55,000 nt of DNA, taken from the NCBI RefSeq assembly GCF_900187885.1, contig NZ_FYEK01000022.1, forward strand, positions 1 through 55,000, given 5' to 3'. Position 1 is the first letter of the stretch; every line of letters begins with the position of its first letter. The translations under genes and the position numbers were made by a program. The notes under the pieces are model-generated. The model saw nothing but the letters and a program-made list of their open reading frames with translations. It was not told where the DNA came from and ran no database searches. Below are positions 4,262 through 39,312 of this stretch, in pieces. The stretch comes from Thermoflexus hugenholtzii JAD2 (GTDB taxonomy: Bacteria; Chloroflexota; Anaerolineae; Thermoflexales; Thermoflexaceae).

Positions 4262-4498
4262 GACGGGAGCTTTTTGGCTTTCCGGGGGGAGGGTTTGCTT
4301 CGGATCCGATCACAGCGCGAGGGCAGCAAGGCGGCGGCGTGCCTGCGTCCGGCCGGCCCGGGCGGACGGGGGTGGAATCCCCGAGTCGATTCAAGGACGG
4401 GGAGGCCACTGCCCGCTCTTCTTCGCCCACCTGGTGACGCGTTGTTGTGATCCTAATGAGGATCTCGGATGTCGTGGCCCCGTGTCCCCGTGCCGAGT
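4262..4498. other. Non-coding stretch after the Uma2 gene
   Basis: I see no convincing gene in this part of the 377-bp gap before the tRNA genes. It is GC-rich with no clear terminator hairpin. The remainder of the gap holds the 74-bp palindromic repeat and the tRNA promoter, listed separately. Confidence 0.6.
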
Positions 4499-4572
4499 GT
4501 GTCCCGAAATCGTAGGACAACTGCAGTCAGTTGTCCTACAAAGCGACCAGGCCTGGCAAAATTGGGACCCAC
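4499..4572 (+). repeat. 74-bp palindromic element, copy 1
   Basis: The element begins GTGTCCCGAAAT and ends ATTGGGACCCAC, so its ends are inverted repeats. Inside is a perfect 12-bp stem GTAGGACAACTG (4512-4523) with its complement at 4528-4539 and a 4-base loop. A second copy of identical length and same orientation sits at 39193-39266. Both end 17-24 bp upstream of the -35 box of a strong promoter. It could be a MITE, a transcription terminator for upstream genes or an operator. Confidence 0.85.
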
Positions 4573-4595
4573 CGGCCCAGGCCCTGTGCTCGATC

Positions 4596-4625
4596 TTGAC
4601 ATGGTCCATGTCCTCCGGGTAAAAT
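4596..4625 (+). promoter_or_regulatory. Promoter of the tRNA-Ala pair
   Basis: A consensus TTGACA (4596-4601) and a TAAAAT (4620-4625) are separated by 18 bp, and the first tRNA begins 14 bp after the -10 box. This matches a sigma70-type stable RNA promoter. Confidence 0.85.
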
Positions 4626-4638
4626 GAAGAGTGCACGT

Positions 4639-4711
4639 GGGGCCGTAGCTCAGCTGGGAGAGCGCTCCTCTCGCACGGGAGAGGTCGCCGGTTCGAATCC
4701 GGTCGGCTCCA
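4639..4711 (+). tRNA. tRNA-Ala (anticodon CGC)
   Basis: A complete 73-base cloverleaf: acceptor GGGGCCG pairs with CGGCTCC, D-arm GCTC/GAGC, anticodon stem CTCCT/GGGAG with loop CTCGCAC (anticodon CGC, reads GCG), variable AGGTC, T-arm GCCGG-TTCGAAT-CCGGT, and A73. The 3' CCA is not encoded, so it must be added by a nucleotidyltransferase. Confidence 0.95.
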
Positions 4712-4726
4712 CTGGTTGGAAATCGT

Positions 4727-4799
4727 GGGCCCGTAGCGCAGCTGGGAGCGCGCCTCAATGGCATTGAGGAGGTCACGGGTTCGAATCCCGTCGGGTCCA
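4727..4799 (+). tRNA. tRNA-Ala (anticodon GGC)
   Basis: A 73-base cloverleaf 15 bp after the first tRNA: acceptor GGGCCCG/CGGGTCC, D-arm GCGC/GCGC, anticodon stem CCTCA/TGAGG with loop ATGGCAT (anticodon GGC, reads GCC), T-arm ACGGG-TTCGAAT-CCCGT, and A73. CCA is not encoded. It is probably co-transcribed with the CGC tRNA; the pair covers the two GC-ending alanine codons preferred in this GC-rich genome. Confidence 0.95.
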
Positions 4800-4808
4800 C
4801 CTGTTCCA

Positions 4809-38810: not shown

Positions 38811-39192
38811 GTCGGGAACCCCCAGATCTTGGGTAAGATGGCCGGAGCCCCGCCACATCTTCCGGCCTCAAGCGGGCTTCCATCATAGCATAGCTGGGTC
38901 GGCCTGTCAAGGGGGATGGGCTGCGCCGGGGGCGCGTTCCCGGCCGGCCCTTTCCTTGATATCCGCTCCCGAGGGATGGGAGGAGGATCCCCCTCCCGGG
39001 GATGTACATCGGAGGATCGGGGGACGCCGGGGAGGGGCTGAGATCTCGGCGTGGTCCACCCCTCGTTGCGGGGCTTGTCGGTTCTTCTGGATGGATCCGG
39101 GCGCTGGGGATCCGTTCCCGGCGGATGGATCTTGGGGATGTGGGGTGGAGTCAGAGGGGACCGGTCGGGTCACCCTCATTGCGCGTTGAGGT
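38811..39192. other. Divergent intergenic region between nrdR and rplS, left part
   Basis: The 682-bp gap contains the nrdR promoter (38882-38910), then about 280 bp (38911-39192) of GC-rich sequence in which I see no gene, RNA or strong hairpin, then the 74-bp element and the rplS promoter listed separately. Confidence 0.55.
38882..38910 (-). promoter_or_regulatory. nrdR promoter
   Basis: On the minus strand TTGACA (38905-38910) and TATGAT (38882-38887) are separated by 17 bp, about 70 bp upstream of the GTG start. No NrdR box overlaps it. Confidence 0.85.
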
Positions 39193-39266
39193 GCGTCCCA
39201 AAATCGTAGGACAACTGCTTGCAGTTGTCCTACAAGGCGGCCAGGCCCGACAAAATCGGGACACAC
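39193..39266 (+). repeat. 74-bp palindromic element, copy 2
   Basis: It begins GCGTCCCAAAAT and ends AAAATCGGGACACAC. The inner stem GTAGGACAACTG (39206-39217) and its complement (39222-39233) are identical to copy 1 at 4499-4572; loops and some flanking bases differ. It lies 17 bp upstream of the rplS -35 box. Confidence 0.85.
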
Positions 39267-39283
39267 CCGCGTTGGGGGTGATG

Positions 39284-39312
39284 TTGTCAGGATCATACGG
39301 GGCGGCTATAAT
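39284..39312 (+). promoter_or_regulatory. rplS promoter
   Basis: TTGTCA (39284-39289) and a perfect TATAAT (39307-39312) with a 17-bp spacer. The leader to the rplS ATG is about 175 bases, long enough for regulation by structure, but no known L19 leader motif is evident. Confidence 0.88.

What the first reader, a model, noticed from the sequence alone, without database searches (positions are those of the whole stretch)
4499..4625. 74-bp palindromic element placed just upstream of strong promoters of translation genes (copy 1)
The element at 4499-4572 and the one at 39193-39266 have the same length, the same orientation and an identical 12-bp stem, with inverted ends GTGTCCC/GGGAC(A/C)CAC. 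Each ends 17-23 bp before the -35 box of a consensus promoter: the tRNA-Ala pair here, rplS at the other site. A mobile MITE inserting at random would not be expected to take the same place and direction twice. A shared operator, an insulator-terminator or an upstream activating site is plausible.
Basis: partly seen in the sequence, partly recalled or inferred. Interest (0 to 1): 0.65.

Follow-up and report, generated by a model that had tools for sequence, protein, structure and literature searches.

The report
Miniature transposon that inserts beside promoters
The repeated palindrome is a tiny non-autonomous transposon of a Thermoflexus bacterium that keeps landing at one fixed distance upstream of ordinary gene promoters, a rare targeting habit already known for its probable parent family (ISKra4), so it is a new, unusually clear member of a known kind and not a regulatory site.

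Summary
The two elements are real and are members of an 80-bp repeat family: about 17 copies in this Thermoflexus (Chloroflexota) genome and about 60 in a complete relative. It is a MITE: 11-bp inverted ends GGGTGTGTCCC, an internal 28-bp palindrome and 8-bp target-site duplications (73-77% identity per position, 31% by shuffling). The rplS copy has a clean empty site, promoter intact, in the relative. In 35 of 62 full-length copies the end lies about 15 bp from a -35 box or about 38 bp from a -10 box pointing away from it; displaced windows give 1.7 on average, 4 at most. It replicates in two further genomes. Both orientations occur, and young copies show it at least as strongly as old ones, so it reflects target choice rather than retention of an operator. 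This matches the published specificity of ISKra4 and ISLre2/TnGBS Mutator-like transposases. I found a complete ISKra4-type IS with identical 11-bp ends in another genus of the class, and an ISKra4 remnant in a sister species whose end matches the MITE at 20 of 23 positions; both have a -10 about 39 bp outward. No active transposase was found in the carriers.

The parts
4495..4574 (+). MITE copy 1 (80 bp, about 87% identical to the family consensus, old copy)
   Evidence: about 17 copies in G000
4495..4505 (+). left terminal inverted repeat, GAGTGTGTCCC (consensus GGGTGTGTCCC)
4564..4574 (-). right terminal inverted repeat, GGGACCCACCG (consensus GGGACACACCC)
4512..4539 (.). internal 28-bp palindrome GTAGGACAACTG-CAGT-CAGTTGTCCTAC
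4596..4625 (+). sigma-70-type promoter of the tRNA-Ala pair: TTGACA-18-TAAAAT, starting 21 bp from the element; present without the element in G004 and G002
4639..4801 (+). two tRNA-Ala genes (4639-4712 anticodon CGC; 4727-4801 anticodon GGC)
39189..39268 (+). MITE copy 2 (80 bp, 98% identical to consensus)
39189..39199 (+). left terminal inverted repeat of copy 2, AGGTGCGTCCC
39258..39268 (-). right terminal inverted repeat of copy 2, GGGACACACCC
39206..39233 (.). internal palindrome of copy 2
39183..39188 (+). left copy of the target-site duplication, GCGTTG (last 2 bases apparently lost at the junction)
39269..39276 (+). right copy of the target-site duplication, GCGTTGGG; single GCGCTGGG at the empty site of G004
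39284..39312 (+). promoter of rplS: TTGTCA-17-TATAAT, exactly 15 bp from the element end; intact at the empty site in G004

Best explanation
The element is a non-autonomous miniature transposon (MITE) mobilised by an ISKra4-type (Mutator-like, p-MULT 4) DDE transposase. The transposase recognises the GGGTGTGTCCC ends, cuts the target with an 8-bp stagger and integrates at a fixed place just upstream of sigma-70-type promoters, about -50 to -43 relative to the start site: 8 bp duplicated, 7 bp left, then the -35 box. Shown here: multicopy 80-bp unit, inverted ends, 8-bp duplications, an empty orthologous site, fixed promoter distance in four genomes, both orientations, matching ends on ISKra4-family IS. 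Inferred: that an ISKra4 transposase did the mobilising, and that targeting works through promoter-bound RNA polymerase or sigma rather than bare DNA sequence. No regulatory function is needed; inserting upstream of the polymerase footprint spares the host gene.
For: Copies in both orientations. TSD: 62 full-length copies match at 0.73-0.77 per position over exactly 8 positions, shuffled mean 0.31, maximum 0.37; repeated in 28 other copies at 0.54-0.86 over the same 8 positions. Empty site at rplS in G004. Fixed distance: outward -10 hexamers (>=5/6) 36-39 bp from the end in 25 of 117 flanks against 0.2 expected; TTGACA (>=5/6) at exactly 15 bp in 10 of 117; in loci mostly from G060/G061, 21 of 53 and 11 of 53; 35 of 62 copies against mean 1.7, maximum 4, in displaced windows. 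Copies with TSD 7-8/8: 23 of 38; degraded ones (0-4/8): 8 of 18. ISKra4 link: complete 1419-bp IS with both ends GGGTGTGTCCC, transposase NF033572 E = 7e-48, 9-bp duplication ATTGACCTA, TATAAT 39 bp outward; sister-species remnant ending GGGTGTGTCCCAAGTTTGTCGGG with TAAAAT about 39 bp outward; another ISKra4 IS in the genus with 8-bp duplication CGCTATCG and TTGACA at 15 bp. Literature: PMC3942029.
Against: No ISKra4-family transposase reaches E 0.001 in the carriers G000, G004, G006, G060 or G061, so the mobilising enzyme was not found in a carrier genome. The IS protein L235 is below the curated NF033572 cut-off (163.7 against 205 bits). Beyond the 11-bp ends the MITE resembles the known IS only over about 23 bp at its right end. 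About 45% of copies have no recognisable promoter at the canonical distance. Promoters are inferred from sequence, not mapped. Copy 1 itself is 21, not 15, bp from its -35.
Confidence: 0.9

Rival explanations
1. Random insertion followed by purifying selection: only insertions upstream of the -35 survive, so survivors appear near promoters.
For: Insertions inside genes or promoters would be harmful, and no promoter lies closer than about 10 bp in the strong set.
Against: Selection alone gives a lower bound, not a peak. The -10 counts fall from 25 at 36-39 bp to 5-6 per 4-bp bin at 40-47 bp and about 0-2 beyond, although intergenic space upstream is available at least at copy 1. Young copies show the peak as strongly as old ones.
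Confidence: 0.06
2. A functional cis-element (operator, activator site or insulator) kept at a fixed phase from promoters.
For: Fixed distance; strong hairpin; copies beside tRNA genes and rplS.
Against: 8-bp target duplications and an empty site; either end can face the promoter (20:14); orthologous promoters lack it; absent or nearly absent from several congeners; the whole 80 bp is conserved as a transposon copy, not only a binding core.
Confidence: 0.04
3. A sub-rival on mechanism: it is a promoter-targeting MITE, but the transposase recognises a DNA motif (TTGACA-like) directly and does not sense RNA polymerase.
For: TTGACA at exactly 15 bp is the sharpest single signal.
Against: Many sites have a good -10 at 37-40 bp and no recognisable -35, which fits recognition of the whole promoter complex better.
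Confidence: 0.25

Closest known systems
ISKra4 group insertion sequences (p-MULT 4, Mutator superfamily; Guerillot et al. 2014, PMC3942029)
   Same: Insertion 13-17 bp from the -35 of sigma-A promoters, 8-9 bp target duplications, near-perfect inverted ends with promoters found on both sides; the p-MULT 4 family is reported from Chloroflexi; a complete ISKra4-type IS in another genus of the class has identical 11-bp ends.
   Different: 80 bp, no transposase gene, internal palindrome; copy numbers of about 17-60 per genome.
TnGBS / ISLre2 (p-MULT 3)
   Same: Insertion 15-17 bp upstream of the -35 of sigma-A promoters.
   Different: Those insert in one orientation and mostly in Firmicutes; here both orientations, and transposase matches favour ISKra4 over ISLre2.
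Prokaryotic MITEs such as Correia elements (review PMC10969869)
   Same: Short, TIR-flanked, multicopy, intergenic, close to genes.
   Different: The review's main text names neither ISKra4 nor ISLre2; Correia elements carry promoters, this element sits at a fixed distance from existing ones.
Yeast Ty3/Ty1 targeting of Pol III genes (analogy only)
   Same: Integration at fixed positions guided by the transcription machinery; several copies here sit 50-70 bp before tRNA genes.
   Different: Retroelement integrase, Pol III; unrelated enzyme.

Membership tests
MITE | Short non-coding element with terminal inverted repeats in many copies | tested here: met
   80 bp, 11-bp TIR, about 17 to about 60 copies
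MITE | Target-site duplication | tested here: met
   8 bp
MITE | Insertion polymorphism / empty sites | tested here: met
   rplS locus in G004
MITE | Ends shared with an autonomous element | tested here: met
   ISKra4-type IS L235, 11/11 at both ends; remnant L229, 20/23 with the MITE right end
ISKra4 group (as non-autonomous derivative) | Insertion 13-17 bp upstream of -35 boxes in more than 20% of sites | tested here: met
ISKra4 group (as non-autonomous derivative) | 8-9 bp direct repeats | tested here: met
ISKra4 group (as non-autonomous derivative) | Both orientations relative to promoters, with near-identical IRs | tested here: met
   L:R 20:14
ISKra4 group (as non-autonomous derivative) | Encodes an ISKra4-family transposase | tested here: not met
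   no coding capacity in 80 bp; no such gene at E 0.001 in the carrier genomes. Hence called a derivative, not a member IS.
ISKra4 group (as non-autonomous derivative) | Mobilised by that transposase | not testable with these tools
   needs a transposition assay
TnGBS / ISLre2 (p-MULT 3) | Single orientation, right end next to the promoter | tested here: not met
   both ends face promoters, 20:14
Operator / insulator / activating site | Fixed orientation or conservation at orthologous promoters | tested here: not met

The most novel reading that the evidence does not exclude
Integration is guided by promoter-bound RNA polymerase holoenzyme, so the MITE family is a natural genome-wide record of polymerase-occupied promoters in a thermophilic Chloroflexota genus, including a preference for heavily used tRNA promoters.
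Probability: 0.5. Interest if true: 0.6.

Novelty: new member of a known kind. Interest (0 to 1): 0.42.

Why it matters
Very few bacterial transposons are known to target promoters at a fixed distance. This family shows it in a non-autonomous 80-bp element in a thermophilic Chloroflexota genus, with about 60 full-length sites in two close genomes and a replicate in two more. It gives a small, well-defined substrate with which to ask whether the ISKra4/ISLre2 transposases dock on RNA polymerase, and it marks probable promoters in genomes without transcript maps.

Tried and rejected
Rfam: only the two tRNAs. Phage records: no match to the copy 1 region; viral contigs: no exact match to the core motif. 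The G006 contig 244 pair of ends 1.67 kb apart looked like an IS but is two short deletion derivatives of the MITE around an unrelated gene. Truncated copies and the longer variants in L017, L075, L077 and L169 were checked for an autonomous parent; none was recognised. Helical periodicity of -35 distances (about 15, 24, 34) was considered and dropped: too few sites. A regulatory role was rejected for the reasons given.

Full report
What is there. The window lies in a Thermoflexus genome (relatives carrying the element are named Thermoflexus; the genus assignment of the window itself rests on that and on the kinship table). The element at the given place and its second copy are as described. 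Searching the whole genome gives about 17 copies. Among the eight congeners, a complete-genome relative (G004) has about 60, one (G006) about 20, and the others none or only fragments and the core palindrome. Two further genomes reached through named contigs (RSWP15 = G060 and 626A.7 = G061) carry a slightly diverged version.

It is a transposon. A profile of the family gives 62 full-length copies in G000 and G004. Comparing the flanks at every possible shift, exactly one shift gives a match: 8 bp on either side of the 11-bp end GGGTGTGTCCC, with 73-77% identity per position against 31% in shuffles whose maximum was 37%. Twenty-eight copies in other genomes, most of them from G060 and G061, give the same 8 bp independently. 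At rplS, G004 has 95-96% identical flanks, no element and a single target GCGCTGGG followed by GGCAATA and the same TTGTCA/TATAAT promoter. At the tRNA-Ala pair the promoter is conserved in G004 and G002 without the element, but upstream DNA there is too diverged to show the junction.

It sits at a fixed distance from promoters. Reading outward from element ends, -10 hexamers (at least 5 of 6 with A2 and T6) are found in 25 of 117 distinct flanks at 36-39 bp, where 0.2 are expected from the genome, and hardly anywhere else; the inward direction shows nothing comparable. TTGACA (5 of 6) peaks at exactly 15 bp. Some sites with a weak -35 still have a good -10 at the right place. By a joint criterion 35 of 62 copies qualify, against a mean of 1.7 and a maximum of 4 for the same windows displaced by 45-94 bp. 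The pattern replicates in the second set of genomes: 21 of 53 flanks for the -10, 11 of 53 for the -35 at 15 bp. The promoter may lie off either end (20 left, 14 right). Copies with good target duplications show it in 23 of 38 cases, degraded ones in 8 of 18, so it is not something acquired by slow selection.

What moved it. Guerillot et al. 2014 (PMC3942029) report that TnGBS/ISLre2 and some ISKra4-group Mutator-like transposases insert 13-17 bp upstream of sigma-A -35 boxes with 8-9 bp duplications, and that ISKra4-type elements with near-identical ends use both orientations. A search for the ISKra4 transposase model found it in two congeners, G002 and G005. In G002 a C-terminal fragment lies about 80 bp from the end GGGTGTGTCCCAAGTTTGTCGGG, which matches the MITE right end at 20 of 23 positions, and has TAAAAT about 39 bp outward. 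A different ISKra4 IS in G002, split over two contigs, has the 8-bp duplication CGCTATCG and TTGACA at 15 bp. In another genus of the class (G119, L235) a complete 1419-bp IS has GGGTGTGTCCCAA at both ends, a 367-aa protein whose best family is ISKra4 (E = 7e-48, below the curated cut-off), a 9-bp duplication and TATAAT 39 bp outward. The carriers themselves have no ISKra4 match, so the responsible enzyme was probably lost or is in strains not held.

Interpretation. The best account is a MITE of the ISKra4 kind that inherits its parent's promoter-upstream targeting. The -50 to -43 insertion position abuts the upstream edge of the region held by RNA polymerase (general knowledge), which agrees with the proposal repeated in PMC3942029 that such transposases touch the initiation complex; that step is inferred, not shown. 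A regulatory role is unnecessary and is opposed by free orientation, an empty site and promoters that exist without the element.

Window copies in this light. Copy 2 is a standard young insertion (98% to consensus, 15 bp from -35). Copy 1 is old (87%), with no recognisable duplication and 21 bp to the -35; the flank reads GGCCCA-GGCCCT, so a 6-bp duplication after insertion could account for the difference, but that is a guess.

Limits. Promoters are called from sequence. The library searched for papers is partial, so an ISKra4 MITE may have been described elsewhere; none was seen.

Noticed in passing
L035, L046, L056 (G025); L036, L047, L057 (G002); L048 (G005): The 28-bp palindrome GTAGGACAACTGCTCGCAGTTGTCCTAC occurs on its own, without the MITE ends, in dozens of copies in other genomes of the genus and class, like a REP-type repeat. 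It may have been captured by the MITE or spread separately.
   Followed up: partly
L074:1263-1316 and L074:2883-2929: Two short MITE copies that lack most or all of the internal palindrome; one keeps a perfect 8-bp duplication GACGGCGC. Probably palindrome deletions, or ancestors without the palindrome.
   Followed up: partly
L017:1499-2079, L075:971-1091, L077:1221-1577, L169:1363-1477: Longer relatives with MITE-like ends and different interiors (about 113 to 580 bp); L075 also lies 16 bp from a TTGACG.
   Followed up: partly
L017, L074:1440-1600: Frequent repeats of the form GTAGGAGCGGCTTTCGCCGCGAC in intergenic DNA of the genus, a separate repeat family.
   Followed up: no
L231 (G005:C8): A second ISKra4-family IS (ends AGGTGCATTTCAGTTT) with its transposase split over two frames and an 8-bp duplication GGAAGAGG.
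   Followed up: partly
L067, L065 (RSWP15): Single MITE copies with promoter-like sites at about the canonical distance on both sides, i.e. apparently inserted midway between divergent promoters.
   Followed up: no
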